A DNA stretch of 64,000 nucleotides, from NCBI RefSeq assembly GCF_030463535.1, contig NC_132900.1, positions 31,891,742 through 31,955,741 of the forward strand, given 5' to 3'. A program made the position numbers and the translations under genes. The notes beneath the pieces are model-generated. The model was not told the origin of the DNA. It did not search any database and saw only the letters and a program-made list of their open reading frames with translations. This DNA comes from Salminus brasiliensis. Its lineage: Eukaryota > Chordata > Actinopteri > Characiformes > Bryconidae. Position 1 is the stretch's first letter. Each line of letters begins with the position of its first letter. Shown in pieces: positions 1 through 52,130 of the stretch.

Positions 1-2006
1 CTAGAGGAGTGAGGCAGAAAGCATAATGGTTATGTTCTGAGCCAAGATAAGCTGCATTCATCCTCGGAGTCTCAGCATTTTCTCATCTCTCATCTTCCTA
101 AACTGGCCTTTAAAGGCACATGAATATAAGAGAACACCCAGACCCTGGCTGTAATCCTGAAAAAATAAAGACTGATTTTAGAAATTCTTCACATTTCCTG
201 CTGAAACATCCCTTTACTCACATGGATGAACTGCTTTGGTGCTTGAAACTGATTTACCCAAGGCATAGCTTCACCGAAGCCGTGGAATGGACGAATGCAA
301 TAGTATATAAACGGTGAGGGGCAGAAGACGAGTTTCTGAGCGTCCATTGGTCAGATTCACACAAACCCATAAATGGACACACAAGTCCACAGACTCCAGA
401 GGGTTAACAGCAGTCAGTACTCTAAACAGGGCTTAAGTTCATCTGTAATATTGACCTTTGGGTCTGGGAGAGTACAAATCAATAATGTAGCCAGAAACTG
501 ACCCTAACCTCAGTCTAGTAGAACTCACCTTTACGTTCTCTGAAAAAGACACCGTATACTTTTAGATCATATATAATCAGAGTGCAACACTCCACACTGA
601 CACATTCAGGAGGATTCTGGAGTCTGAGCTTAAGCTTCAAATGGACTTTTAATACTGTGTGTATTGTATGTCTATCTAACTGTACACTCTTAAAAATGAA
701 GGGGCTTTAAATGGAGAGCATTGCTGCAGAACAATCACTTATGGTTCCATAAAGAAGGTGAGGAACCTTCAATCCAGTTCATCAAGGTTCAACAAGTTCA
801 TCACATTTACACATGTCTATTATGAACATGGTTCTTTGTGGAAGCAAAGTGGTTCTTCTGTGGCCCAGGTCTTCAAATCTGGACCCTGAATGCAGTCTCC
901 AGTCCTGGATTTTGTTCTCATTGGAAGTTAATGGAACAGTTCATGAAATTGATTGCCCAGATAGTGTCACGCCCTCCAAGAACTACAAAATTCATTATTA
1001 GAAGAACTCTGTTCTATGGAATCACCACAAAGAACCAATTGACCACTTTTTTAAGTGCATATTTCACACATGGAAACTCATGAGCGATATTAAGGTGACA
1101 ATAAACCATCATATGACAATTTCAGATTTTTTAAGCTGCTGTGAGCTTGTTTAGCTTTCCTGAGCTGAAATTGTAATACTTTTTACCTTTTTGTGAAAAA
1201 AGCTAAGCGCGCCAAGGCAAAAAAGGTCAATCTGTACAAAATCTAGTACACACTGCACTCTAAGACTCCAGATCTATTATAAACAGAGTTTGTTTTTTTA
1301 GCAGTTTTGCCAAATATTAGTGTTCTACTGGCTGGTGCATTGTGCCACTGTGTTGCACCATAAGACCTTTGCTAAGCTCTCAATAATTGCAGTCCACACA
1401 AAAAAAAATGTTACAAAACAGTCTCAGACAATGACCATTCACACACATTAACCTAATTTCCTAATTATTTTTTTCCTCATTTTTGAAAAAGAAGAAATTC
1501 CAAATTTGAGAAGAAGATGAAACCAGCCACTCCGCCCGCTATACGTGGCTCTGCAATTTTGCCAACAAATAATTAAATAGATTGGAAAGTCATTTAAATG
1601 TTGAGATTTTCACAATATGTGGCTGGAAATTCAGGCTCCACTGGTTTAAGTTTATAAAATAAAAAGGCATGCATCTGATTCAATGACTGTGGAAAACATG
1701 GATCCTGAGCATGGTTCTCTTCCATAAAGCCGCCTTCTTACAATAGAGCAGAGTAAGGGTTAAAACTTGATTACTGAGGGGAGAGAAAAAAATTATGGAG
1801 ATGGGCGGAGCTACATACATCATACTGCAACCGGCCAGCAGAGGCGCTAGACCTGCGTTTGCTTCACTTTTGGGAAACGCTGCGCTGTCCATGTTTTCTA
1901 CAGTCACTGGTCTGCTTCATCAGCATCAATCACAGTTATCACAACTCACCCCAGTACTCAGGTCAGTCTCTTTAGGTCACAGATCTAACGAAGGGTCAAC
2001 ACTTAC
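1..2006. other. Presumed por intron, no coding sequence seen
   Basis: This stretch lies 3' of the first coding exon of por on the minus strand and should be intron. I saw no reading frame resembling the FMN-binding domain that the next por exon should encode. Around 690-1080 there is a repeat-like stretch with the GGTTCTTTGTGG type of words that recur near 61.6 kb, so a degraded MITE is likely. The rest is AT-rich and unremarkable. Confidence 0.5.
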
Positions 2007-2182
2007 GGAGTTTCCAGCTTCTTAAATTCAGGGATGGCCTCAGTCTTCTTGCGGAACATGACCCAGTATATGAACAGGCCCGCAATGAGGGAGAAGAGAA
2101 AGATGTCCAGGTTACTGAAGAAAGGCTCTCCATCTTCCATTAGCTCAGGCCGGGTTGAGGCCTCTGTCTCAGCATCTGCCAT
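2007..2182 (-). CDS. por: NADPH-cytochrome P450 reductase, first coding exon (partial gene)
   Basis: This exon encodes the first 58 residues of cytochrome P450 oxidoreductase, the ER flavoprotein that passes electrons from NADPH to microsomal P450s. The peptide starts MADAETEAS, has a hydrophobic anchor at about residues 21-43 (FFSNLDIFLF onward to YWVMF), then a basic stop-transfer RKK and the conserved PEFKKLET linker that precedes the FMN domain. It starts at ATG 2182 and ends at a consensus donor, GTAAGT, reading down from 2006. A good acceptor (CTTTCAG) ends at 2197, so 14 untranslated bases precede the ATG and an upstream noncoding exon must exist. The remaining exons are beyond the left edge. 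Identification rests on the N-terminal pattern of the family; the exon is short, so this is confident but not certain. Confidence 0.8.
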
Positions 2183-3702
2183 GGTTGCGAGAAGCTCTGA
2201 AAGACCAAAAGAACTTTGTCATTTTATAAAGTAAAAATAAACTATGCTCAAATAGCATGAAATCGCTACCCCAATATTCATATCAGCGAGAATAACATCA
2301 AGAATATGTGAAGCGTGAAACATATTTAAATGAAATTCACCTGATATTTATATATACACATTTATATCACCGTCATATCACAGTTTCTTATGTTTATCTT
2401 ATAAAGTGGACAAACAAATCACCAGTCAGTAAGGCTGGGGACGGTATGACCCACAAAAAATAATAATTGCAAAATGTATTTAACATTTGACAGTTTTATG
2501 GTATATTAATTTATTTACATATTATTGTATTATTTATTCTTGTCAGTAAAACTGACTGCAATATTTTTTAGTGTTGAAAACCAAACCAAATAATAAATAT
2601 ATAGATAAACTAGTCATTACTGCATTCTAGCCTACTTTCTCTAGCAACACACTACGGTGCGTCTATTACAGTATGTAAGAATCACAGACTGCAGGTATAC
2701 TATACTAGATCAGCACTAGCAGTCAGTAAAGCACTATTTTAGGTAGTAAAACAAATGGCGCACTGTATTAAAACATCAATTAAGATTAAAATAAACATCA
2801 TACTGGCTGATTTTATCGGTTATCTTTTTTATTATTCTTATTTATTAAAAAAAAAAAATGTTCAAAAATATGGTCATCATGCCACTACCCAGTCGTAAAT
2901 TAACTTCAACGTGCACACCATCACATCTTTTTAATAATTAGCCACATGTCTTTTCAATCAGGTCCTTTTGTGCAGAACATGAGACGGCTGCATTCCTCCC
3001 TCTATCGGAGAGGACCGACCCCATTGTGTGGGGAGGGAAGGAGACTCTTGTGACCATGAATGAGCAACTAGGGGTGTTTCACAAACCAGTAGCACATAAG
3101 GCTCCCATTTACAGATTAACTACCCTGAGAAAGCCTGTGGTGATGGATACTGAGCAGAAAACCACTGAAACCGTTGTGTGGCGGACAACAGGCACTGCTG
3201 AGCTGATTTTAAGTAACGTGCGAATTTGAAAACCGATAAAGAAGATGAGGAGAAACGATTAGGAGAGCAGAACAGACCTCAATTTTATACTTCAGGACGT
3301 CTAACTGCCCTAATATTTCCCACGTCAGTGGGTCATGCTGCTTTCCATCAGCGGCCGGAGTCAGACAGAGCACAGTCATGTGATGTTGCGATGTTGGTCA
3401 GCACAGGGGCCTGTTAGCTGTTGTATCGGCGCTGTCCAACTTCCCATTTTATCTGCTTGTCTATCAGCTACTGCTTGCTAAAATTGAAGCCTGGAGTCAA
3501 CGCTTGCTAAATACCAGTAAAAGCATGGCTGTTTTCACACCGCCGCTGATCTCAGTGGAAAGGTGAGCCCTGTGGGTGAAGTTTGTCTAGTTATGCTTTT
3601 TACCAGAACAAAAATAAACACGGATTCAAAGCAATCAGATAAAATTAGGGCAAAGCGTAAGATGTTTATGGACATGCTGATTGGTATGAAAGGATTAAAA
3701 CT

Positions 3703-6921: not shown

Positions 6922-7269
6922 ACTGAAACGTTTCTTGAATTTAATAACTCATTATTATGGAGTAATTTCAGTAAAGTATCCATTCCCTCGGTTTAATAAC
7001 AACTCGTTCCCTCGAGTTAACAGTTTCCTCAGTTAAAGAAATGTTATAAATCATACCCTTGCCTTGGACTAATGTTTATGATTTAATAAATCTGAGGTAA
7101 TCAGCAGAGCCGGCTCCCCCAGTCTACCTACAGACAGCTCCACTGGACAGTCTGGCGGCTAAACGCCTTAAATAAACACTTTAAAAGCTTTAAAAAGTCT
7201 CTAAATGTGATTAAAGCAGCTCTATAGCTACTCCAGAACCCCTGTAAACGGTAGCTAAGGAGAACCGGG

Positions 7270-7790
7270 ACGTTTCGGAGACGTTAGTCAGACAGCTAGC
7301 TTAGCTACGCTAACTCGACACACACAGGCGGCTCATATCACCACCTTCCGGCCCGCGCTCCTCTGCCTCACCCAGCGGCCAGCGGCCAGCGGCCTGCCCC
7401 GGGGCGGCTCGCCAGCTCGGGACTCGGAAGGCCGGAATAAACAGCAACAAGCGGACCGACGTGCTTCGAGTGAAGCGAACAGCCCGAGCGGCTACAAGCG
7501 GAGTGCAGTACCTCAGCCGTGCGCAGCTGCTGCAGAAAGCGCCGTCTGCTCTCAGGACCGCTGTGGGAAGTGTGTGTGTGAGTGTGTGTGAGAGTGTGTG
7601 TGTGCGTGTGTGAGAGTGTGTGAGAGTGTGTGTGGACGCCCCGGAGACTCGCCTCGCTCCCCGCTCGCTCCGCGCGCTCTCCCCGCTCCTCAGCCTGACC
7701 TGCGCGGTACACGCTGTGGGGACGCCTGACGTCACGGCCGCCACATACAACGCCAGACGAGTCCATCCTGCGCGCAGGGGGGGGGGCGGT
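7270..7790 (-). promoter_or_regulatory. por: CpG-rich candidate promoter and noncoding first exon of por
   Basis: This is the most CpG-dense stretch outside the coding genes. It lies 5' of the first coding exon of por and before the divergent sbds gene. Reading the minus strand, a plausible donor GCTGG|GTGAGG ends a putative untranslated exon at 7372. A palindromic CRE, TGACGTCA, lies at 7727-7734, and a GT/GA-type simple repeat at 7568-7640. Reading frames here encode only repeats. The assignment to por is inferred from position; the start site cannot be seen. Confidence 0.5.
7727..7734. promoter_or_regulatory. Consensus CRE (TGACGTCA)
   Basis: A full palindromic CREB/ATF site at the upstream edge of the CpG-rich region, consistent with a proximal promoter element of por. 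Confidence 0.5.
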
Positions 7791-8188
7791 TCACACTCCT
7801 CACGAATTAAGTGTCTGACTGGATACTGAGCGAAACTTACATGTTTTAATAATAATAATAATAATAAAAATCACACGATTATTCGTTGACGTGCCGTCAT
7901 TCGGACTCGGTTCTGTGTTTTTAAACATTACGTAAAGTGCGTAAACCCGCCGGTCCTCACAGTGGGCGAGTCCCCGGTTTTGTAATGGCATTAGGCAGCT
8001 CCGGATTGGTGTCGGTCGTGAATGCACGTGAATTAAAAGTCAAAGTGCAGCGGGCAAGAGGTCAGGGTTATGCAATCACCCCCCCAAACAGAACAGCCTG
8101 TCTTCATGACCCTGAAGCTTCGCTGCTCCTTTCACTCACCATAAACTCACTCTCCCCCACAAAGAGCAAGACCCGAGTATCCACCCAG

Positions 8189-9301: not shown

Positions 9302-9598
9302 CAGCCCAGCAGGGGGCAGCACTGGCGTGTGAGCAGCCCAGCAGGGGGCAGCACTGGCGTGTGAGCAGCCCAGCAGGGGGCAGCACTGGCGTGTGAGCAG
9401 CCCAGCAGGGGGCAGCACTGGCGTGTGAGCAGCCCAGCAGGGGGCAGCACTGGCGTGTGAGCAGCCCAGCAGGGGGCAGCACTGGCGTGTGAGCAGCCCA
9501 GCAGGGGGCAGCACTGGCGTCTGAGCAGCCCAGCAGGGGGCAGCACTGGCGTGTGAGCAGCCCAGCAGGGGGCAGCACTGGCGTGTGAGCAGCCCAGC
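9302..9598 (+). promoter_or_regulatory. 32-bp minisatellite carrying nine CTCF-type motifs
   Basis: There are nine full tandem copies of a 32 bp unit plus a tenth partial copy. Each full unit contains CCAGCAGGGGGCAGC, which fits the CTCF consensus CCASYAGRKGGCRSY at every position. Motifs start at 9306, 9338, 9370, 9402, 9434, 9466, 9498, 9530 and 9562, all on the plus strand. The units are almost identical; one carries GCGTCTGAG instead of GCGTGTGAG. The array ends only 57 bases before the sbds start codon, so it overlaps the sbds promoter or 5' UTR. Reading frames through it are artefacts of the repeat. CTCF binding is inferred from the motif only. Confidence 0.85.
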
Positions 9599-9645
9599 TT
9601 CAGCGGAGAGCGGCTCATAAGAAGAAGCGCGGCGGGCGCAGCTGA

Positions 9646-14559
<4,914 letters not shown>

Positions 14560-20319: not shown

Positions 20320-22830
20320 TGCATGGACTGTACCCGAAGCTCACGCTCACGCTCGAGGCAGACTGCTGTCTGTCGTTCTGCGGTGTGAAAGCTGTCTGAG
20401 GCAAAGCCATCAACCTGCAGTTCATGCTCGTTGAAAACAGGTGTGTGCTGTTCGAGAACATTTGGGCCTGCCGAGAAGAATTCCAGCCTTGCAGGATTCT
20501 TTGTGCCTGGGACAGTGGGGGTTGGATCTGCACTCTGTTCTGCAGCCCAATTTACGAGTCTGCGGTTGAAACCTCTTATGAGGAATCTCAAAAAGATTAA
20601 CAGCTATTAGAACCAGCCAGATCTGCCTTCTTCAGTACCGGTTTTGCTTTTGTTTGTGGACAAAGCACCCGAGCTGACCTTTAATCCACATTTCCCACTA
20701 TCCTTTGAGGATTCGTACAAACTGATGAAGAAAAGGAAAGAGGTAAAGATCACCCTTTCTGTTTTGTGCCGCCAGTCATCATATTTTACTCATAAACATC
20801 AGAGCTGTTTTTAATGGGTGGCAAACAATGGATGTAGGTCATGAGCCAGACCTGAAACCCTCGATGCATAACACACCCGACACATTACTGACACCATTGG
20901 ATGAAATTTTTTACATTTCGGAGTAGATAGATATATCGTCATGCTAAAAGGCCAAACATCATGAAGCAGCTTCATGTTTTCACCGATTTAAGAACAAACT
21001 CATATGCATTCTAGTGGTTGGTGTAGCGTAGTGGAGAACAACACTGCCTTCCCTGAGGGTCAGATGTCGGGCCAGACTTCTTTATGGAACCAATGGTGGT
21101 TCTTTCATGCCTAAATTGTAGTCTAAAGTGATATTTGTGGATTTACAGAGCAAAAATGATATCTTAGCAAGTGAAATCCTCTTAAATGTAGTTTAAATAT
21201 CTAATATTTCCCATTTTCAGGTTATTGTAGTAATCTTCAATGGTTGACCATTGCAATTATTTCTAACCTTTTTTATTTTTTACTTGTTTTAAGGGATTTT
21301 AAGGGATTTTTTTTGCATATTTTTCTGCATGGCATCGCTCGAAGACCACCAAAATAAAACCCTAAAAATCAATGAGTCCTTGTGCAAGACTTGCCACAAT
21401 CTCCTTTCTGTGAAACATAATTCAAATGTAAGCTGCTCTAGATAATAATCTCAGCAAAATGCCATAAATGCAGTAAAAACTAAAGCTGCTGTTGTTCATC
21501 CGAGTAGGGAGACAGATTTACAGTTAACATCACCTGTTTTGATTGTGGCTGGGAAAAAATCCCAGGGTGACACTACAGACGTGATGTCAAAAGGTCATAA
21601 AGGACATATTCCATTAAATAAGTATGTAAATGAACGTCAATCTATATTACTAAGGGCAGATACGAGCATATGCTAATGGATCGGGTATCGGCTGTTTTAA
21701 TCCCAATCCAGGTCTGAGTTTTAGTTTTAACCGTAGTTTTCAGAGCGCCACCTGGTGTCCTCAGTTCGCCACTACGCTATAGTCCAGCCGGCTGCAGCAG
21801 CAGTGCGGACGTTCTCAGAAGGTAAATAAAGGAGGTTCTGCAGTGTGGAGCTATTTTACAGTGGAACCTGAAAACAGACCATAATATCTGAACCTTTATA
21901 AAACTCTCACTGAAACGCTCTGTTTTACCAGCGGGAGACATTCACCCACTATAAACCAGTTATTACACACCAGTAGACCAACAACCAGAGATACCAGTCC
22001 AGAGTGTGTAACACCACACACGCACTCTCACACACACTGGAAGTGATTAGACTGCAGTGTTGTAAAGGAGCTGGGAGCTGATTGGTCAGGGAGGAGATCA
22101 GACTGGATTATCAGATATTAAACACAATAAAACATCATTTTAAGAAACGTCAATTAGTCCAGAATGTCTGATTATAGAAACTGATACTGAAATAAAGAGA
22201 TTTTACTGATCTGATTATTCAGCAGCTCGTCTGATCTAAACTCAGATCAGATCAGATCAGTATCGGCTGATACTCAGCATTAAGAGACTCGAATCGGATC
22301 AGACAGCAACATAACCTGATCAGGATAATGCTGTTTCAGACTAGCACCACCTTTCTAAACCCCAAGGAAAAAAGGTTCTACGTAGGGTTTTATCTGTGGT
22401 GGAACCATGTTTTAAATGCTTGTTTGGCAGAACCTAATAAAGTCCTGTATAAATATTAGTATAAGCGCAGATGGTGACATATAATGCCCTACAGTGAATT
22501 GAAAATACCATTGACCCTTTATAAAACTCTCACTGAAATGCTCTGTTTTACCAGCGGGAGAACCGTACTCACACACACACACAGCAGAACTGGTAGTTCT
22601 AGTGGTTGTTGTGGTTCTATAAATACCATTGTTTTTTGGCTAAGAACCAGTGAACAGATTGCACTTGACGGTTTAGTCAGGAGTTGTCCAACCAGCTGCA
22701 CGAGCTTGTCTGCATTCTAGACAGAGCACAGGCTCAACATACTGTCTGATACAATACTGAAAATCCATGTGATTAACTGAGGTTCAGCGTAGTTCAGCAA
22801 TAATAGACAAATGAAAACTTCTGATTTCTG
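20320..22830. other. Intergenic with repeats
   Basis: Holds a SINE-like head near 21015-21075, MITE-like GGTTCTTT words around 21090 and 22370, and a ~45 bp direct duplication (CCTTTATAAAACTCTCACTG onward) at 21893-21938 and 22516-22560. A CTCF-like motif is at 21744-21758. No gene was seen. Confidence 0.45.
21744..21758 (-). promoter_or_regulatory. CTCF-like motif
   Basis: On the minus strand ACACCAGGTGGCGCT matches the CTCF consensus at 14 of 15 positions. Its orientation faces the plus-strand array upstream of sbds. Confidence 0.55.
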
Positions 22831-31703: not shown

Positions 31704-32925
31704 ACCCTAAACCCTAAACCCTAAACCTAACACTCACTCTAACCCTAAACCTAACACTCACTCTAACCCTAAACCTAACGCTCACTCTAACCATAAACCT
31801 AACACTCACTCTAACCCTAAACCTAACACTCACTCTAACCCTAAACCTAACGCTCACTCTAACCATAAACCTAACACTCACTCTAACCCTAAACCTAACA
31901 CTCACTCTAACCCTAAACCTAACACTCACTCTAACCCTAAACCTAACACTCACTCTAACCCTAAACCTAACGCTCACTCTAACCATAAACCTAACACTCA
32001 CTCTAACCCTAAACCTAACACTCACTCTAACCCTAAACCTAACACTCACTCTAACCCTAAACCTAACACTCAATCTAACCCTAAACCTAACACTCACTCT
32101 AACCCTAAACCTAACGCTCACTCTAACCCTAAACCTAACGCTCACTCTAACCCTAAACCTAACGCTCACTCTAACCCTAAACCTAACACTCACTCTAACC
32201 CTAAACCTAACACTCACTCTAACCCTAAACCTAACGCTCACTCTAACCCTAAACCTAACGCTCACTCTAACCCTAAACCTAACACTCAATCTAACCCTAA
32301 ACCTAACACTCACTCTAACCCTAAACCTAACACTCACTCTAACCCTAAACCTAACACTCAATCTAACCCTAAACCTAACACTCACTCTAACCCTAAACCT
32401 AACACTCAATCTAACCCTAAACCTAACACTCACTCTAACCCTAAACCTAACGCTCACTCTAACCCTAAACCTAACACTCACTCTAACCCTAAACCTAACA
32501 CTCAATCTAACCCTAAACCTAACGCTCACTCTAACCCTAAACCTAACACTCAATCTAACCCTAAACCTAACACTCACTCTAACCCTAAACCTAACGCTCA
32601 CTCTAACCATAAACCTAACACTCACTCTAACCCTAAACCTAACACTCACTCTAACCCTAAACCTAACACTCAATCTAACCCTAAACCTAACACTCACTCT
32701 AACCCTAAACCTAACACTCTAACCCTAAACCTAACACTCAATCTAACCCTAAACCTAACGCTCACTCTAACCCTAACCTAAACCTAACACTCAATCTAAC
32801 CCTAAACCTAACACTCAATCTAACCCTAAACCTAACGCTCACTCTAACCCTAAACCTAACACTCACTCTAACCCTAAACCTAACACTCAATCTAACCCTA
32901 AACCTAACACTCACTCTAACCCTAA
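31704..32925. repeat. Telomere-like 24-bp minisatellite, ~51 copies
   Basis: It begins with three CCCTAAA units and then about 51 copies of a 24 bp unit reading CCCTAAACCTAACACTCACT plus CTAA. Each unit holds CTAACCCTAAACCTAA, very close to the vertebrate telomere strand CCCTAA. Variants are GCTCACT, ACTCAATCT and CCATAAACC. The repeat produces a 327-residue false frame of alternating Val-Arg on the minus strand. It starts about 215 bases upstream of the 30.7 kb claudin's promoter. Confidence 0.92.
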
Positions 32926-39769: not shown

Positions 39770-41385
39770 CAGTCATGCCCGAAAGTATTCATACCCCTGT
39801 CAAAGTTTGACTTAAATTTACTTTTATTTAACCAGAAATTATATTTTTGCCTGGAAATGACACAGGCATCTCCCAGGAGATAACACGATGATGTACAAGA
39901 GGCATCATTGTGGGAAAAAATATTTCTCAGCTTTTATACACATTTGAACAAAAAGTGGCATGTCCAAAATTATTCATACCCTTCTCAATAATTAATAGAA
40001 AAGCCTTTATTGGCTATTACAGCAATCAAACGCTTCCTGTAATTGCTGACCAGCTTTTTGCATGTCTCCACTGGTATTTTTGCCCATTCATCTTTAGTGA
40101 TGAGCTCCAACTCTTTGAGGTTCGAGGGTCTCCTTGCCATCACCCTGATCTTTAGCTCCCTCCACAGATTCTCAATTGGATTCAAGTCAGGACTCTGGCT
40201 GGGCTACTGCAAAACATTAATGTTTTTGTCTGCTAACCATTTCTTCACCACTTTGGCTGTGTGTTTTGGGTCGTTGTCGTGCTGAAATGTCCACCGGTTC
40301 CCAAGGCCAAGTTTCTCTGCAGACTGCCTGATGTTGTTGTTGAGAATCTTGATGTATTGCTCTTTTTTCATGGTGCCGTTTACTGCGATCAAGTTCCCTG
40401 GTCCATTGGCTGAAAAACACCCCCAAAACATTAGGTTCCCACCACCATGTTTGACAGTGGGGATGGTGTTCTTAGGGTTGAAGGCTTCTCCTTTTTTACG
40501 CCAAATGGTGCACACATCATTGTGGCCAAACAATTCAATTTTTGTTTCATCTGACCATAAAACAGAACACCAGAAGTCTTCTTCTTTGTCCAGATGAGCA
40601 TTTGCAAAGGTCGAGCGGGCTTTTGTGTGCCTTTTCTGGAGAAGTGGTGTCCTCCTTGGCCTGCGTCCGTGGAACCCAGCAGTGTGCAGTGTCCGTTGAA
40701 CTGTCTGCCTTGAGATGTCGCCACCAGCAGAGTCCAGATTCACCAGGATGGCCTTGGTGGTGATCCTTGGATTTTTCTTCACCTCTCTTACTATTCTCCT
40801 GGCCAGCACAGGTGTCACTTTTGGCTTCCGACCACATCTTCTGAGATTTTCCACAGTGCGGAACTTCTTGTATTTTTTAATAATACTTTGCACTGTAGCC
40901 ACTGGAACTTGAAAACATTTTGATATGGCTTTATAGCCCTTTCCTGACTTGTGAGCGGCCACAATGCACAGCCGCAGGTCCTTAGTGAGCTCCTTTGTCT
41001 TAGCCATGACTGTCCACAAACCAACTGCAGAGAGCTGCTGTTTTTCTCCTGTTGAGTTGATTAAAACAGCTGTTCCCAATGAATCAGGGTAATTAGGATG
41101 CTTTAAAACAGCTTGGACTATTTGGAATGGTATAGAACTTTGGATTTTCCCATATACTGTGACAGTTTTCAAAGGGTATGAATAATTTTGGACATGCCAC
41201 TTTTTGTTCAAATGTGTATAAAAGCTGAGAAATACTTTTTCCCACAATGATGCCTCTTGTACATCATCGTGTTATCTCCTGGGAGATGCCTGTGTCGTTT
41301 CAAGGCAAAAATATAACTTCTGGTTAAATAAAAGTCAATTTAAGTCAAACTTTGCCAGGGGTATGAATACTTTCGGGCATGACTG
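39770..41385 (-). mobile_element. Tc1-like transposon, 1616 bp, nearly complete
   Basis: The element begins CAGTCATGCCCGAAAGTATT and ends with its complement, flanked by TA on both sides (39768-39769 and 41386-41387), the Tc1/mariner target duplication. The inverted repeats are about 215 bases long (to about 39986, and from about 41171). Each has an outer and an inner motif; the inner reads GGCATGTCCAAAATTATTCA. This is the IR/DR layout known from fish Tc1 elements. It carries one transposase frame on the minus strand. A few differences between arms (for example AAATGACACAGG versus the matching CGACACAGG) show some age. Confidence 0.95.
39985..41007 (-). pseudogene. Tc1 transposase with a single internal stop
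   Basis: Full-length frame of 341 codons including the stop, the usual Tc1 transposase length. It starts MAKTKELTKDLR. Domains in order: a paired-like helix-turn-helix DNA-binding region (residues about 1-115, with GKGYKAISK, and GRKPKVT followed by the second helix-turn-helix), then the DDE catalytic domain with WSDETKIELFG, HDNDPKHTA and [15 protein letters not shown], which supply the two Asp and the Glu. The one defect is a TAG at 40204-40206 where the family has Trp in the motif before PSQSPDLNP; the frame continues unchanged to INY and a stop. It is therefore probably inactive, but the lesion is a single base. Confidence 0.93.
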
Positions 41386-43014: not shown

Positions 43015-44136
43015 TTTTTGATTAATTTGTGCCGTCCTATATAAAAACTGAAAATACATGACACTTAAATATTTTTAACGTCTTAACATAATGTGTAGGA
43101 CCCTGAGAAACCACAGATGCTCAGCATTCAACCCCATAACACTCCAAGACTTATTACACTCTGAAGTATTGTCCACCACGGACCACTGACCATTTAAAAA
43201 AAAACTACTATCAATATGCAAGTTGTTTACTGTATCAGGGTATACTTTACTACAGGACATTAGCACATGTGTATTTCATATTACATCACCAAAGTTTCAT
43301 ATTTAGGAGAGTATTTGGACCTATAAGTGAGACTGATGTAAGAATAACAGAATATATAGGTTACAGATTTATTCTGATCAAATACGAAAGAATTAGAAGC
43401 TCAGCTTATTTTTTGAGTTTTTGAGTCCAACTAGTGGAAGTCTGAACCGTTACACAGGGAAGATAATCTGAGATCGGGTAACGGGTCCTGCTCCATCCAT
43501 AGACAAAGAGTGGAATTGTACCTCCCTGCGTGTCTTATTGAAAGGGTGATTCAGCAGTTTTTTTTTGTCCCTCAAGGTTAATGGGAGAAATGCTCATATG
43601 AGTGGGCTCCCATTTCAACCCTGAAAACTCGTTAAAATGTCTTGGTGACAACAGGTAAAAAAGTATATTTTTCCAAATTTTGTAATGATTAGAAATGCTA
43701 AAAATAAATAACAACAAAGACAAAATAAAGAACAGGTGTCAGATTCACATTATGTCCAAAAGTAAAACAATAAATGGATATAGAAGGTTTGTTATACCAA
43801 AATAAATCAAAATTCCTAAAAACCATACTGGATATACAAAAATGAACCTTAACCTCCAAGAACCTGTGTGTAAGCCCAGTAAGCACAGTATGCTCATGCA
43901 TATTAAGTACATATATGCATATTAGTTTCCTAGTTTAATTACTGAATAATTATTATGTTATGAATATTATGTTTTATGATTAATATCAGCAGTAAAATCG
44001 CCATTCATAGTCTTGAAATGAACGCCTGCATTGGTATGTTTCCACCATATGGTTTTGTTTGGTCTTGTGACTGAAAAAGTGACAGACAGTTAGATTAGCT
44101 CTTATATTGGTGCAAAAATGATGCCATTGTGGTCTG

Positions 44137-44168
44137 ACTCCACCTTCAAACTTCTTAGCAGTATAAAG
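44137..44168 (+). promoter_or_regulatory. Core promoter of the 44.4 kb claudin
   Basis: ACTCCACCTTC at 44137 is followed 25 bases later by TATAAAG (44162-44168), about 200 bases upstream of the ATG. A CT-rich tract follows at 44190-44225. Confidence 0.65.
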
Positions 44169-44361
44169 AAGGTAGAACCTGGTTCTATCCCTCTCTCTCT
44201 CCCTCCCTCCTCTTTCCCTCCCTCACCAGTCTCTTTTAAGAAAGCTTTATCCAGTCGAGAGAGATCTAATATCGTGGCTTTTTTCCGGGACTGCATCTGA
44301 GACACAGAGGACCTCAGTCCGCAGAGCCCCCCGGAACAAAGAAGGCGAAGGCGCAGAGACG

Positions 44362-45015
44362 ATGGCTTCAGCTGGCCTGGAGATCCTGGGCATGATTCTG
44401 TCCGTGGCCGGCTGGCTGGGCGTGATGGTGGCCTGCTGCTTGCCCATGTGGCGAGTGGCGGCGTACGTAGGCCAGAACATCGTGATCACCCAGGTGGTGT
44501 GGGAAGGCCTGTGGATGAGCTGCGTGGTCCAAAGCACGGGACAGATGCACTGCCAAATCTATGACTCCATGCTCGGGCTACCTGAGGACCTTCAGGCGGC
44601 CCGTGCCCTCACTGTGGTCTCCACATTTGTCGGGGTGGTAGGCATTGCTCTTGCGGTCGCAGGCGCAAAGTGCACCAACTGCACCTCAGACATGGCCAAC
44701 AAACCCCGCATCATGCTGGGTGCCGGCGGGGCGTTCATTGCGGCCGGCCTGCTGCTGCTGGTTGCCGTGTGCTGGACGGCCAACACCATCATCATGGACT
44801 TCCATGACCCGTTGCTTCAGGAGACCCAGAAGAGGGAGTTTGGGAACTCGTTGTATTTTGGCTGGGGCGCCTCCTGCCTGCTGATCCTAGGGGGAGCCAT
44901 ACTGTCTTGCTCGTGTCCTTCCAGAAGACAGGGCAATCATGCATCGGCCAGAGCTGACTACTCTGTGGTGAAATCCATGGCTGCGACTGGATACGACAGA
45001 AGGGACTATGTCTGA
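44362..45015 (+). CDS. Claudin, claudin-3-like group (YDRRDYV tail)
   Basis: A 217 aa single-exon claudin. It starts MASAGLEILG and has W30, GLW (49-51), C54 and C64. The first loop VAAYVGQNIVITQ differs from the usual [13 protein letters not shown], and the disulfide loop is [16 protein letters not shown]. The second loop is DFHDPLLQETQKREFGNSL, with FHDP in place of FYNP. The tail ends [10 protein letters not shown], the same last seven residues as the other two plus-strand genes and very close to mammalian claudin-3 (YDRKDYV). The TATA box is at 44162. A poly(A) signal candidate (AATAAA, 45937-45942) lies beyond a MITE, so the 3' UTR may include that MITE. Likely role: tight-junction barrier in epithelia, by family. 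Confidence 0.94.
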   Translation: MASAGLEILGMILSVAGWLGVMVACCLPMWRVAAYVGQNIVITQVVWEGLWMSCVVQSTGQMHCQIYDSMLGLPEDLQAARALTVVSTFVGVVGIALAVAGAKCTNCTSDMANKPRIMLGAGGAFIAAGLLLLVAVCWTANTIIMDFHDPLLQETQKREFGNSLYFGWGASCLLILGGAILSCSCPSRRQGNHASARADYSVVKSMAATGYDRRDYV

Positions 45016-45447
45016 GTGGTCTTAGTGGTATTTCTTTAGGAAAGGCTAGATTGTCTAATAGGACACAGGTGAGCACCATGCATGCAGAGACCATCAAATT
45101 GTGCTAGAACTTGCAGAAAACTACAGCAAGATATAGAACACATGTTCGTGATGTAGAAAGTAGATGCAGGTAGCTCTACAGAACGTCTACCAATCAGCTA
45201 CCAGTCAACAGGTACACACCTGAATAGTGAGTGTGCTCATGAATGGGAAATGTACATGACTCTGTGTTTTAATAATGACTGTATCTCATCTAGATTTGAA
45301 CTAAAGGTGGAACCTCTCCAACTACTTCACGACAATAAGCCTAAAGGCTCACAGGTGTCCAGCACTGTGGTACACACTGTCAGACTATTATGGCTCTTTT
45401 TCTTTTCTAAAACTGCTGAGTAAAAAGCACATAATGGAAATGTCAGG

Positions 45448-45902
45448 TGTACAAACTGATCAGCCATAACATTAACACCACCTGCCTAATAATGAGTAGG
45501 TTCACCTTGTGCTGCCACAACAGATCTGGTCATTCGAGGCATGGACTCCACAAGACCTCTGAATGTTAGCAGTAGATCCTGTAAGTCCTGTGAGTTGTGA
45601 AGTGGGACCTCCATGAGCATCAATGAGACTTGGGCACCCACAGCCCTGCTAATTCACCATTGCACCGGTTGTCTTTCCTCTGAGCACTTTTGGTAGGTAC
45701 TGACCACCGCATATCGGGAACACCCCACAAGACCCGCCTGACGTTTTGGAAATGTTCTGACCCAGTCGTCTAGAACATTACAGTTTGGTTCTAGTCAAAG
45801 TGTCTCAGATTCAGACTCTACCCCTTGACAGGCGCCACGGTAGATGTCAATGTTTTGCCACCACCGGCCAGTGGTGTTAAGGTTATGACTGATCAGTGTA
45901 CA
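45448..45902. mobile_element. MITE with palindromic termini (~455 bp)
   Basis: Starts TGTACAAACTGATCAGCCAT and ends with the complement of ACTGATCAGTCATAAC. The inverted termini of about 35 bases include AACATTAACACCACC. The interior has no coding sequence. It lies in or just after the 3' UTR of the 44.4 kb claudin. Confidence 0.75.
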
Positions 45903-45949
45903 TTGGCTTAGCAATGTAAACACATTTTCTGAAAGTAATAAAGTCATTA

Positions 45950-47810
45950 TCAGAGAACATTCAGCACATCAACGCCATCTAAAACATGTGACTTTTTCTT
46001 CTCCAAAGTGCAGACAAGCTTTTCAGACTGTAGAAAAATCAAGAAACCTAAGACTCTGCAAAGTTACGCTACCTAAGCTAAGCAACAAGGACTGCTCTCT
46101 GCAAAGTGCCCCGTATCATATGAAATCTACCCAGCTTTTAAAGAGCTGCTACACACTGAAATTAGCGTGGATATGACAATGCAGCCGTTGTTCTGGGACC
46201 TTCTGCTGCTCCTTTGTGTCCACTCCTCAATTCAGGGGTGCGTAACTGAAACTAGCCACCATGAGATGAAAGCTCCTGCCTTGTTGCTAGGTGAATAAGC
46301 TATCTGGGCCCAGTCTTCAATAGCGTCATTGATTGGGGAAACTAACATTTAGGTCTGAGGAGGCGTGGCTTAGTGCTGTGGCATTCCTTTGTTTAGCTGG
46401 TGGAACTCATCTGAAGGACAAAAGCATTTTTGAGAGACTGAAATATAATATCAGCTAAAAATATTCTTTTGAGGAAATTGATCATTTTGATAACACACAG
46501 TCAAGCCAGGATAATTAGCAAGTATCATGCTTGATATTTGACAGCATCCAGCTTAATTCCTGTTTTTTGGTGTTGTTGAGAAATCCACTCCACTCACTCT
46601 GGGATAAATCACAGTTCTGAGTTTTTTCAGTGTGTATCTCTAATTTGACAACTTTGTATAAAGAGTGCCCAGCAGGTTTTGGCCTATAGAAAACTGTAAA
46701 TGTTCAAAAAGTTTGTGGACACTAATTAACGCATTTAGCTACTTTATTTTGCACCCATTGCTGACACAGATGTGCAAATGCACACACAAACAGTTTGTCT
46801 AGTTCCTGTAGAGAAGTAATAGGACTTTCTGGAGCAGATCAATATCATGTACCTATTGGCACCATGCTGCCTAATGCCAGGCGTGGGCTAGTAGAGGGGT
46901 ATGGAGCCCCCCAGCATTGAGCTGTAGAGCAGTGGAAGAACTGTGTTCTCTGGAATGATGGAGGAGCTCCATCCAGTACTTTGGGGATGAGATGGGTGGT
47001 GATCATCTAACCCCTTAAGCTCTTAAGCTCATGGTGGCCTGTGCCCACAATTTTATATGACATACTTGGCTTTTTACTGTATGTCAAGTGGAGCTATAAA
47101 TCCACAGTCTGTAATGTATCTCATATAGGTGTAAAATACTCTCATGCTCCATCAGAGATCCAACAATACTATCTGTATCCAGCAAAACACCTTCCTACCT
47201 GAGCTGTGAAACCAAAACGACCAAGCATTTTGGTTGAAGTAGGGGTTAAAGTAGGTCAGCAGGAACCAGATAGATGTGTCTGACAGTGTATTTGTCTAAC
47301 CAATATGTGGTGTCTAGGTTCCACAGACACTAAATGTTTATGTTCTGTGACCCTGATTCAAAGAGTAGATGTGTTGCACTTTTGGTCAGGCCTCGTTTGG
47401 TCATGTGACTGACTGTTTGCTGGACTTTTAGTGGAAGCCATCAGATCTTGAGGCATTTCCATTAACATTCAGTGTCAACAAATGAAGCACTGAGGATTGT
47501 CTGCACAAAATCCTTGTATACCACTTTTATGTGAGTCACTCTGCATTGCCGAAAGTTTATGGACTTGGTAGATACGCTCGTTCATGTTTGCAGACCCTCC
47601 CCCAGGTCATACTTCTCTTCTGAGGTTTTGTTCGTTTTGTGGTTTAAGTGTAACCTTCCAGTTATCCTTTAACCAGATTCCCCTGGGCCTTGGTTATCAA
47701 TTCACCTCCCTTTTGCTGGATCTACCATGGGCAGGACATTGAATCATTAAAAAAGTTTCCATGCCAAGGTTGCACTGGGGGAAAAAAGAAAAAAAAACAT
47801 TATTTTGAAA
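45950..47810. other. Intergenic, one MITE, no gene seen
   Basis: Mixed DNA between two plus-strand claudins. Besides the MITE at 46.7 kb nothing was recognised. Confidence 0.4.
46698..46998 (+). mobile_element. Common MITE family, longest plus-strand copy
   Basis: Runs from AAAAAGTTTGTGGACACTAA through CATTGCTGACACAGATGTGC and CTAATGCCAGGCGTGGGCTA to GAGCTCCATCCAGTACTTTG. The right terminus was not found. Confidence 0.7.
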
Positions 47811-47817
47811 AGTTTGA

Positions 47818-47880
47818 CCAATCACCACGAAACCTCATCTGTTCAAAACTCCACCTTCCTCTGTGGAGATAGTTATAAAG
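47818..47880 (+). promoter_or_regulatory. Promoter of the 48.0 kb claudin
   Basis: CCAAT at 47818-47822, ACTCCACCTTCC from 47848, and TATAAAG at 47874-47880. The C-rich box starts 26 bases before the TATA, and the TATA is 108 bases before the ATG. Confidence 0.7.
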
Positions 47881-47981
47881 CACTGGGCCATTGCCGAGAA
47901 CCTCCCTCGGCTTTTTGAACCCTGTGTATTCATATCTGTGGTGGATTCTCAGAGCGAGGCAGCACTTTCTAAAGGTCCAGA

Positions 47982-48638
47982 ATGGTGGCTCTGGGTTTAG
48001 AGATTTTGGGCGTCACCTTGGCGACTCTAGGGTGGATCGTCGCCCTCATATCTTGCATCTTGCCCATGTGGAGAGTCACGGCCTTCATCGGCTCCAACAT
48101 TGTGACGGCGCAGATAATTTGGGAAGGAATCTGGATGAGCTGCGTTGTCCAGAGCACCGGGCAGATGCAGTGCAAAGTCTACGACTCCATGCTGGCTCTC
48201 AGCTCTGACCTGCAGGCCGCCCGTGCTCTGTGTGTGATCTCCATAGTGCTGGGGGTGCTAGGAGTTCTGGTCTCCATCGTAGGGGCCAAGTGTACCAACT
48301 GCATCGATGAGGAGGTAACCAAGGCCAAGGTAATGATTGCTGCTGGAGTTACGTTCATTTGCGCTGCTGTCATGCAGATAATCCCAGTGTCCTGGACAGC
48401 CAATGCTATTATAATGAATTTCTACAACCCGGGGGTGACCGAGGCGCAGAAACGAGAGATAGGCGGCTCTCTCTACCTGGGATGGGCGGCCGCTGCTCTG
48501 CTGTTGATAGGGGGATCAATTCTGTGCTGCAGTTGCCCCCCACGAGAAGAGAAGAGGTACAGTCCGCCAGGCAGGATGGTCTACTCCACGACGAGATCTG
48601 TACCACCCAGCGGGTACGACAGAAGAGACTATGTCTGA
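47982..48638 (+). CDS. Claudin, claudin-3-like group (YDRRDYV tail)
   Basis: A 218 aa single-exon claudin. It starts [10 protein letters not shown] and has W30, GIW (49-51), C54 and C64. The first loop is the standard [18 protein letters not shown] and [10 protein letters not shown]. The second loop is [23 protein letters not shown] follows TM2. The tail has [20 protein letters not shown], with a PDZ ligand. The promoter is the clearest of the cluster (CCAAT, C-rich box, TATA). A poly(A) signal AATAAA lies at 49071-49076, giving a 3' UTR of about 450 bases. The codons for residues 72-88 are almost identical to those of the 36.2 kb gene on the other strand. Confidence 0.96.
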
Positions 48639-49070
48639 GCTAACACTTTCTTCGGTTGACGCTTTGCTAAGAGAGACCTTTGGTAAGAGTCTAACCTCGT
48701 ACCTGCATCTGATCAGACTGATCATAACACCCTGATCTAAAGGAGAATCAAGTCTTTTTTGACCTGAGATGAGCTTCAATGTGATGAGGCGTGAATATGG
48801 GTCACTGCAGCCCAAATATTTTCTTTCGGTCACTGTCGTTGTCCAAAGGTCATTGGGAAGAGCTGTTGTGTATATTTTCCCTGTGGTTGCATATTAACTG
48901 TGCAGACAGATAACAAAACAACTGTAAATACACTTGCTTCATGTTTTTTCTCCTCAGAATTTAGAAATCAACAGTTAAATGGTGCTGAGACCAAGTATAT
49001 ATATGTGTGTGTGTTTCTTATTAAAATACATCTACCTGTTGTGTTTTAAGTATGTTGTATTTCACAGTGT

Positions 49071-49076
49071 AATAAA
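49071..49076 (+). other. Poly(A) signal of the 48.0 kb claudin
   Basis: AATAAA in the context GTGTAATAAACATA, about 430 bases after the stop codon. Confidence 0.55.
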
Positions 49077-49079
49077 CAT

Positions 49080-51410
49080 AACTGTTTATAAAATGACTGC
49101 TGTTTTATGAACAAGGCTGCCTGGGATATTGATACCTTTTCTAAATGTATTTACTGAATACATCTTAAAAAATTGGGTTTTCAAGGGTTCCTGAGTTGAG
49201 ACAATGGTTCTACACAGAATATTCACCATTAAAAACATTTCAATATTTAAATGATTTTTGCCAGGGCGAACTGTTTCTTCTTTAGAGTAAAACCTCCTGT
49301 ATAAGTTTAAAATTGGTTCTATATAGCAACACCAAGAATTCCACCACTCAGGGTCAAAGAACTCTAAACTGATCCATTAAATAATTAATAAATTATTTCC
49401 ATTGATTCTAAACTACTTCTTAACAAATAATGGACATGTTTGTCTGTGTGGGAGATTGTGATTCAGGCTTTTTTGTAGTCTGAGGTTGTAACCAGTGTCT
49501 TTAAAAGCAGGATTGAAAACCATTAAGTAACTGGTTACATATATATAAATAAAGGTGCTACAAATGATTCCTTGACCAGTGTCATATAAGAACCACGTTT
49601 GACTCATGTTTGTAAAAGAAGAATGGTGCAAGCATCTTTTAAAAGCTTAAAGAATCTACAAATAATGAAGTAATCAAGGTTTTACACACATACCAGAGGT
49701 GCAAAGACCTTTTGTAACTCCTGTATTTTTAACCGTACTCAGGTATCATTGTAATGGAATACTGTAACAGTACAGTAACATCCCCTGAATTTGAACATTA
49801 AAATTGTATTAGGCTGTTTTTATTAAAACATCTAATTAAATTTATCATTGTAAAATGAATTTGGACCCTAGTGTTGGAACTTGTTCCACTTGTTATTAGA
49901 CACATTACATCACTGAATCACACTGTGCCAAACAAAGCAAAATTAGAGTTTTTAAGGTTTTATGTGTTAAAATGTTACTTTTTAAAATACTTTTATATGT
50001 TTAAATGTTAACCTTCCAACCTTCTCTCAAGAGTATGTTTGGACTCCACATTTTAAACAAGCAAGAATTTCTTAACATTCTCATTGGCAGTCCTCTTCCT
50101 CCCAACAGTCCTTCAATATATGTTCAGGTGGTTCAGGTAATAAACATATATATATTCTTTTTACTAGTTGTAAGTCATTTTATCTACTAAAAGGGTTTTC
50201 TTATTTTGTCTTAATCTAAGAAATAACATAATTTATTGTTTGTCAAGAAATAATGCTTGTACCAAAATTATGTTCCGGTGGAATAAGACAATAAATATAA
50301 TTCATTAAAACTAGAAAAATATGTTAGAAATAAATTGAATAATATGATAAATATACAAAGTAAAAAAGAGGAATATTAGATATTATACTACATTTAAGAG
50401 GAGATCACCTCCTAATATATTATGTTTTTGCAGTTTGCCTTTGTAAAGTTCCTGTATGTCAGAAAGAAGTGCAACAGAGGATGGCAGACAGTCTCAAACA
50501 GGCCTCCAAGTCTTCAATAATGAGGTGCTGAGTTAGAACCTCCGTCAGTGTAGTTATCTACCTGCCTCTCAAAGGTCTATTAGTGTTCTATAAAAGAAGC
50601 TTGTCTTTGTTAGGGCCCTAATCCAACTGTCCAAGCCACCCCAGTACAATGAGGGTGGTTCAGGGTAGGCAGAGGCCAGGTGGAATTCTCAGTTTCTAGC
50701 CATGGAATGTCCAGGAAGCACATTATTTGAGTTTCTGGGCCATATCTGATGCCCATCCCTGTAGTAAAGCTATGCAGGCATGATGATGAGCAAACACCCA
50801 TAAGATCCACAAACACAGAGGGGCGTCACTGTTATAGGGGTCATGTTTAAGGGTGGGTAAGGGTGGGTCTGTGAAAATACAAAGAGCTATTTGGATCTGG
50901 CCATGATGATCCTCACCACTCACTTTAACCATCAAGAGCAGACCAGACTAAAGGTCATCTGCGTCTGATATTCTTATTTGACTTCTGGAGGAACCCTGGT
51001 GGAAAAGAAGACTGCCATTAGGGGTTAATCACTCTAGAACTGTGCTTGCATTCAGATACTATGAAGAGAATTCCTTCTACTGCATAATAACTGGTTGCAG
51101 GTTTGTTCCCTGGTGATGCCACAGCCATCCGTGGCCCAGAAAGCAAAGCTAGGCTTGTTCTCCTTGGATGGTAGGATGGCCCTCCTTCTCCCATCATAAC
51201 TTAGCATGATGATGGGATAATGATATGATATCATTCAATAAAGTGCAATTTAGTCACAATCACGTACACACAGTGTTCTGTTGTGCCACCAAGGGCCACT
51301 GGATGGCGCCTTACAGCTACAGACCAGACTGTGCAGATGGTCACAATACCAAACATGGATCCAGAATCCCTTTCCACTCTAACCTCAGCAAAAAGTGTAT
51401 AACTACACCA
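49080..51410. other. Intergenic, AT-rich
   Basis: AT-rich DNA with GGTTCTA-type MITE words at 49.2-49.6 kb. A CTCF-like motif lies at 51296-51310. No gene was seen. Confidence 0.4.
51296..51310 (+). promoter_or_regulatory. CTCF-like motif
   Basis: CCACTGGATGGCGCC matches the CTCF consensus at 14 of 15 positions. It lies 100 bases before the 51-bp minisatellite. Confidence 0.5.
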
Positions 51411-51411
51411 T

Positions 51412-52130
51412 ATTAGTCCATAAACACCCCAATAAACACTCTTATACACTAGAATAGGAGATATTAGTCCATAAACACCTTAATAAACACTCCTATACAC
51501 TAGAATAGGAGATATTAGTCCATAAACACCTTAATAAACACTCCTATACACTAGAATAGGAGATATTAGTCCATAAACACCCCAATAAACACTCATATAC
51601 ACTAGAATAGGAGATATTAGTCCATACACACCTCAATAAACACTCTTATACACTAGAATAGGAGATATTAGTCCATAAACACCTCAATAAACACTCCTAT
51701 ACACTAGAATAGGAGATATTAGTCCATAAACACCTCAATAAACACTCCTATACACTAGAATAGGAGATATTAGTCCATAAACACCTCAATAAACACTCCT
51801 ATACACTAGAATAGGAGATATTAGTCCATACACACCTTAATAAACACTCCTATACACTAAAATAGGAGATATTAGTCCATACACACCTCAATAAACACTC
51901 TTATACACTAGAATAGGAGATATTAGTCCATAAACACCTCAATAAACACTCCTATACACTAGAATAGGAGATATTAGTCCATACACACCTTAATAAACAC
52001 TCCTATACACTAAAATAGGAGATATTAGTCCATAAACACCTCAATAAACTCATATACATTAAAATAGGAGATATTAGTCCATAAACACCTCAATAAACAC
52101 TAATATACACTAAAATATGAGACATTAGGC
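51412..52130. repeat. 51-bp minisatellite, ~14 copies
   Basis: Tandem units of 51 bases beginning ATTAGTCCATAAACACCTCA and containing CACTAGAATAGGAGAT. Copies vary at a few positions (CCCC/CTCA/CTTA; TAAACACC/TACACACC), and later copies decay and shorten. Confidence 0.92.

What the first reader, a model, noticed from the sequence alone, without database searches (positions are those of the whole stretch)
9302..9598. Nine tandem perfect CTCF motifs at the sbds promoter
Each 32 bp unit holds CCAGCAGGGGGCAGC, a full match to the CTCF consensus, all in one orientation. The 32 bp period is close to three helical turns, so all motifs face the same side of DNA. The array ends 57 bases before the sbds ATG and separates por and sbds from the claudin cluster. 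A minisatellite that amplifies an insulator site at a housekeeping promoter would be a strong, copy-number-variable boundary. The array is homogeneous, so it is recent or actively turning over.
Basis: partly seen in the sequence, partly recalled or inferred. Interest (0 to 1): 0.75.

Follow-up and report, generated by a model that had tools for sequence, protein, structure and literature searches.

The report
CTCF-motif minisatellite at fish sbds promoter
Just upstream of the fish gene sbds, a short DNA repeat carries nine identical copies of the binding site of the genome-folding protein CTCF; it is a real feature and probably bound, but it is one of several such repeats in this genome, about as many as chance would give.

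Summary
The array is real: nine 32-bp copies at 9302-9598, one substitution in all, each with a full CTCF core on the + strand, 56 bases before the sbds ATG. Each copy scores 21.2 of 29.0 bits (p 4.6e-8) on a recalled CTCF matrix. CTCF cores are strongly over-represented in this genome (6,629 against 79 for the reversed motif). The array thus separates por from sbds and claudins and faces the latter; the best opposing motif (21743, minus) would enclose sbds and three claudins. The core has no CpG, so its methylation is no usable test, and 'all on one face' holds only locally. The genome holds six other CTCF-core minisatellites with unrelated units, one of 61 copies. Seven arrays are close to random capture (5-6 expected; 2.2-fold over two control motifs, p 0.15). 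Promoter repeats that bind CTCF are known in humans. Occupancy, boundary function and copy-number variation remain untested.

The parts
9302..9598 (+). minisatellite, 32 bp x 9.3, nine intact co-oriented CTCF cores
9306..9576 (+). span from the first to the last CTCF core CCAGCAGGGGGCAGC; cores 32 bp apart with 17-bp spacers
9521..9521 (+). the only substitution in the array (copy 7), outside the core
9599..9654 (+). 56-bp stretch between array and sbds ATG; the CpG-rich stretch of sbds begins about here
9655..14559 (+). sbds coding region with introns (first exon starts 9655; an inner exon matches human SBDS structures; last exon ends 14559, by eye)
2003..2218 (-). por exon with the start codon (NADPH-cytochrome P450 reductase), reading away from the array
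   Evidence: no Pfam family at E 0.001
7101..8000 (.). CpG-rich stretch, probable por promoter and non-coding first exon (inferred)
21743..21761 (-). strongest other CTCF-like site of the window (20.35 bits), convergent with the array, between the third and fourth claudin

Best explanation
A single CTCF site at the sbds promoter was captured by chance in a 32-bp minisatellite and amplified to nine co-oriented copies. CTCF probably binds the array, at any time only some copies of it, because 32 bp per site is about the reach of its 11 zinc fingers. So bound, it would act as a rightward-facing stop for cohesin between the divergent genes por and sbds, leaving sbds and the proximal claudins together on its inner side. 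Shown: array, motif, orientation, gene order, genome-wide motif enrichment. Inferred: binding, partial occupancy, cohesin stopping, any effect on transcription.
For: Nine full cores, p 4.6e-8 each. The core is 84 times more frequent than its reversed form genome-wide, as expected of a used site. Forward motifs prevail at left domain borders in zebrafish (PMC6047509, passages), and a reverse motif of 20.35 bits lies 12 kb to the right. por on the left; sbds and claudins on the right. A promoter VNTR with CTCF motifs is bound by CTCF in human cells (SLC6A4 5'-LPR, PMC2848977, passages). Random capture roughly accounts for the number of such arrays.
Against: No occupancy, accessibility, contact or expression data were at hand. 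The copies carry no match to the upstream CTCF motif (best 3 of 9). A mapped pair of occupied sites (TSP50 promoter) has 33-58 bp between motifs (PMC4562119, passages), wider than the 17 bp here. Two weaker reverse sites lie nearer than 21743 (11511 and 18473, 13.4 and 12.6 bits), and forward sites of 19.2 and 19.7 bits lie further out on both sides, so the choice of partner is a guess. No relative's por-sbds gap could be compared. [quoted passage not shown]
Confidence: 0.5

Rival explanations
1. Inert minisatellite: a GC-rich repeat at a promoter that amplified by slippage or unequal exchange and matches the CTCF core without consequence; one bound copy, or none, would do the same.
For: 113 of 40,000 dinucleotide shuffles of the unit contain as good a site; extrapolation from 170 kb gives about 44,000-50,000 minisatellites of 20-50 bp in the genome; seven CTCF-core arrays against 5-6 expected.
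Against: The core is a strongly enriched word in this genome, so a site of this quality is likely to be bound; the place next to a CpG-rich stretch suggests open chromatin (inference).
Confidence: 0.32
2. The array is a landing pad for another zinc-finger factor with a G-rich site (ZIC family, INSM1), not mainly for CTCF.
For: From recall only: the reverse strand TGCCCCCTGCTGGGC resembles published ZIC motifs. No call tested it.
Against: Full match to the CTCF core in nine of nine copies; no ZIC or INSM1 matrix came from a call.
Confidence: 0.1
3. The array is part of the sbds 5' untranslated region and acts in the RNA (structure, translation).
For: It ends only 56 bases before the ATG, so transcription may start inside or upstream of it; the array holds no ATG.
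Against: Array plus leader fold worse as RNA than the mean of shuffles, all 100 of which fold at least as well (z +4.5); the array as DNA likewise (200 of 200, z +6.5); no Rfam family reaches its gathering score anywhere in the window.
Confidence: 0.05
4. Copy number is an assembly artefact.
For: A 297-bp array of near-identical copies is easily mis-sized by short reads; no reads were available.
Against: The contig is 32.8 Mb long; one copy carries a private substitution; other arrays of up to 2.4 kb are present in the assembly.
Confidence: 0.03

Closest known systems
SLC6A4 5'-LPR promoter VNTR, human (PMC2848977, passages read)
   Same: Short tandem repeat at a promoter whose units hold CTCF-like sites; CTCF bound by ChIP and EMSA.
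   Different: 22-23 bp units there, 32-bp units with nine identical full cores here; site strength was not compared, and binding was not tested here.
DXZ4 (PMC3491370, listing only) and 1q23.3 tRNA VNTR (PMC4041453, abstract read)
   Same: Tandem repeat that binds CTCF; the 1q23.3 repeat is proposed as a boundary.
   Different: Large repeats (7.3-kb units at 1q23.3), not 32 bp; variable copy number shown at 1q23.3, not here.
Clustered CTCF sites (2xCTS) at active promoters (PMC4562119, passages read)
   Same: Two or more close CTCF motifs at promoters, with double footprints.
   Different: Motifs of variable spacing and orientation, not a repeat array. BORIS, which marks them, arose in early amniotes (PMC5973138, start of abstract in the listing), so is not expected in fish.
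Tandem CTCF sites of protocadherin clusters (PMC7087399, abstract read)
   Same: Tandem CTCF sites acting as topological insulators.
   Different: Sites belong to the gene clusters and are not 32-bp repeat units (that difference is recalled, not read).

Membership tests
CTCF binding site | Match to core CCASYAGRKGGCRS | tested here: met
   9 of 9 copies
CTCF binding site | Core is an enriched word in this genome | tested here: met
   6,629 against 79 reversed
CTCF binding site | Upstream motif 5-6 nt before the core (present in a subset of sites only) | tested here: not met
   best 3 of 9 positions against TGCAATACC; optional feature per PMC10287918, passages
CTCF binding site | Occupied by CTCF in cells | not testable with these tools
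   no ChIP data
Minisatellite | Head-to-tail units of about 10-100 bp | tested here: met
VNTR | Copy number varies between individuals | not testable with these tools
   one assembly only
Insulator / domain boundary | Co-oriented CTCF sites with a convergent partner | tested here: inconclusive
   reverse site at 21743, 20.35 bits, 12 kb away; contacts not measured
Insulator / domain boundary | Lies between the genes it is said to separate | tested here: not met
   for 'por + sbds versus claudins': sbds and the claudins are on the same side; for 'por versus sbds + claudins' it is met

The most novel reading that the evidence does not exclude
CTCF sites are themselves prone to tandem amplification in this fish, so that unrelated minisatellites repeatedly grow around a CTCF core (seven arrays found, periods 32-49 bp, up to 61 copies), giving genes such as sbds a rapidly evolving, dose-tunable boundary.
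Probability: 0.15. Interest if true: 0.75.

Novelty: new member of a known kind. Interest (0 to 1): 0.42.

Why it matters
Minisatellites made of CTCF sites are natural dose series for a central question of genome folding: how insulation grows with the number of identical, co-oriented sites at a fixed spacing. This one sits between two divergent genes and next to a claudin cluster, and natural alleles with different copy numbers, if they exist, could be compared directly. Six further arrays in the same genome would serve as replicates.

Tried and rejected
Hairpin or RNA-structure function: rejected, folds worse than shuffles. Known RNA family: none at gathering scores. Exact copies of the 22-base word elsewhere in the genome: none; of a 20-base word in viral contigs: none. 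A duplicate sbds promoter without the array, as an internal control: none, a single match at E 0.001. Papers holding SBDS, CTCF, promoter and POR together: 0. Papers holding CTCF, minisatellite and teleost: 1, not on topic by its title and abstract start. Papers holding CTCF, zebrafish, CTCF motif and tandem repeat: 7, of which 6 listed and none on such arrays by title. I found no report of such arrays in fish in these searches, which cover open-licence papers only. The sigma-70 promoter scan does not apply to fish and was ignored. A bias of CTCF sites towards amplification: tested with two control motifs and a TRF sample, not significant. Limits of the counts: exact cores and periods of about 20-50 bp only; the flanks of the C5 and C28:123376 arrays and the C15, C19 and C28:2531531 places were not fetched; control loci were grouped by eye.

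Full report
Observation. The array is real and as described: 9302-9598, period 32, 9.3 copies, 99% matches; nine exact cores CCAGCAGGGGGCAGC on the + strand at 32-bp steps with 17-bp spacers; a single substitution at 9521 in copy 7. Array and sbds ATG (9655) are 56 bases apart. On a CTCF matrix whose counts I recalled (MA0139.1), each copy scores 21.16 of 28.98 bits, p 4.6e-8.

Chance. For one unit of this composition, 113 of 40,000 dinucleotide-preserving and 9 of 40,000 mononucleotide shuffles reach the same score. So the motif is unusual for one minisatellite, but not for a genome with tens of thousands of them. Ten other rows of the window's tandem-repeat table (of 36; nine distinct arrays) scored no CTCF-like site.

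Genome-wide motif. The window lies in a 1.066-Gb assembly of 103 contigs, which gene content suggests is a teleost (inference). The core CCASYAGRKGGCRS occurs 6,629 times (3,305 forward, 3,324 reverse) against 79 for the reversed control. The reversed control contains a CpG, which lowers its count, so 84-fold overstates the enrichment somewhat (inference). The 22-base word CCAGCAGGGGGCAGCACTGGCG occurs only in this array (9 forward, 0 reverse, control 0).

Topology. por runs leftward: its start-codon exon is at 2003-2218 on the minus strand (E 4.7e-11 to NADPH-cytochrome P450 reductase; no Pfam family for this short piece). An inner exon (E 4.6e-23) and the last exon (E 5e-20) are on the same strand in the 20 kb left of the window, the last one about 19.6 kb out. 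A CpG-rich stretch at 7.1-8.0 kb is the likely por promoter (inference). sbds runs rightward from 9655 to 14559. Ten claudin-type open frames follow: 15.4, 17.2, 19.7, 23.5, 25.9, 30.7 and 36.2 kb on minus, 44.2, 48.0 and 56.6 kb on plus. Nine of the ten were given to Pfam and all nine match PMP22_Claudin; the one at 19.7 kb matches claudin structures. The array thus lies between por and sbds. It cannot separate por and sbds together from the claudins.

Orientation. All nine motifs are forward. In zebrafish, forward motifs prevail at the left border of domains (PMC6047509, passages), and motifs at CTCF-bound boundaries are preferentially convergent (PMC8438036, passages). Across the window plus 20 kb on each side, the strongest reverse motif is at 21743-21761 (20.35 bits), between the third and fourth claudin. 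Weaker reverse sites lie nearer (11511 and 18473), and the array could also pair with more distant ones. In zebrafish no clear bias of motif orientation relative to transcription was seen at start sites, so the orientation relative to sbds needs no special reason.

Packing. CTCF reads its core with fingers 7 to 3 and, at a subset of sites, a further motif 5-6 nt upstream (PMC10287918, passages). The array units lack that upstream motif (best 3 of 9). With 17 bp between cores, neighbouring molecules would compete for spacer DNA; the mapped pair of the TSP50 promoter has 33-58 bp between motifs (PMC4562119, passages). I infer that not all nine are filled at once. Helical phase: 17 degrees off per unit at 10.5 bp per turn, 137 degrees over the array, so 'all on one face' holds only for near neighbours. 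The core contains no CpG and the unit only one, 20 bases from the core start, so the CpG-methylation switch described for CTCF position 2 does not apply to these cores.

Other arrays in the genome. Searching for two co-oriented exact cores 20-50 bp apart, in five pattern combinations that together cover the IUPAC core, found 49, 42, 5, 0 and 1 places, which fall into 12 loci. Seven are arrays of three or more in-register copies: C1:2990248 (45 bp x 24), C2:13417015 (40 bp x 61, 49 intact cores), C3:2858380 (38 bp x 14), C5:5349810 (38 bp x 33 or more), C28:123376 (49 bp x 7), C29:3465783 (34 bp x 21) and this one (sizes of the other six). Five are pairs only (C8, C15, C19, C25, C28:2531531). 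The units share little but the core (by eye). The reversed-pattern control gave 0 in all five searches, but its single count is only 79, so that control is weak.

Is that more than random capture? Two made-up control motifs of similar abundance, with 8,780 and 8,025 single sites, gave 4 and 4 arrays plus 8 and 2 pair loci (grouped by eye, two nearby C5 places counted apart; some of these arrays have periods divisible by three and may be coding). Arrays per site: 7 of 6,629 against 8 of 16,805, ratio 2.2, Fisher p 0.15; all loci: 12 against 18, ratio 1.7, p 0.16. From TRF on 170 kb (8 arrays of 20-50 bp with at least 3 copies, the sbds array included) I expect about 5-6 CTCF-core arrays genome-wide; 7 were seen. 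That sample is small and partly chosen next to arrays. A modest excess is possible but not shown.

What it most likely does. A chance minisatellite around one CTCF site, now a cluster that CTCF can load at several points, between two divergent genes. Modelled insulation rises with the number of clustered sites (PMC11828424, passages; sites there were 180 bp apart), so a stronger rightward-facing stop than a single site is plausible. No step beyond sequence was tested. A CTCF-binding promoter VNTR is known in human SLC6A4, where CTCF binds but over-expressed CTCF did not change the reporter output of that VNTR (PMC2848977, passages). This is a caution against equating sites with effect.

Verdict. 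Real, well observed, wrongly placed in its topology, and a new member of a known kind. The more interesting lead is the set of seven CTCF-core minisatellites with unrelated units in one genome, above all the 61-copy array on C2.

Noticed in passing
L041 (G000:C2:13417001-13419600): 40-bp minisatellite of about 61 copies with 49 intact co-oriented CTCF cores; no CpG-rich stretch by my cut-off in the 15 kb left and 10 kb right of it.
   Followed up: partly
window 9866-10146: A second very homogeneous minisatellite (64 bp x 4.4, 99%) in sbds intron 1, 267 bp after the first; no CTCF-like site.
   Followed up: partly
window 31717-32925: 24-bp array of about 50 copies with telomere-like AACCCT words between claudin genes.
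   Followed up: no
window 51410-52128: 51-bp array of 14 copies inside the claudin cluster.
   Followed up: no
window 40204-41271: Open frame on the minus strand that looks like a Tc1/mariner transposase, between the two halves of the claudin cluster, where claudin strand switches from minus to plus (by eye).
   Followed up: no
window 9255: CCAAT word left of the array. If it belonged to the sbds promoter, growth of the array has pushed it about 265 bp away from the start site (inference).
   Followed up: no
L056 (G000:C3:2854101-2858100): A 35-bp array of about 64 copies lies within 1.5 kb of the C3 CTCF-core array.
   Followed up: no
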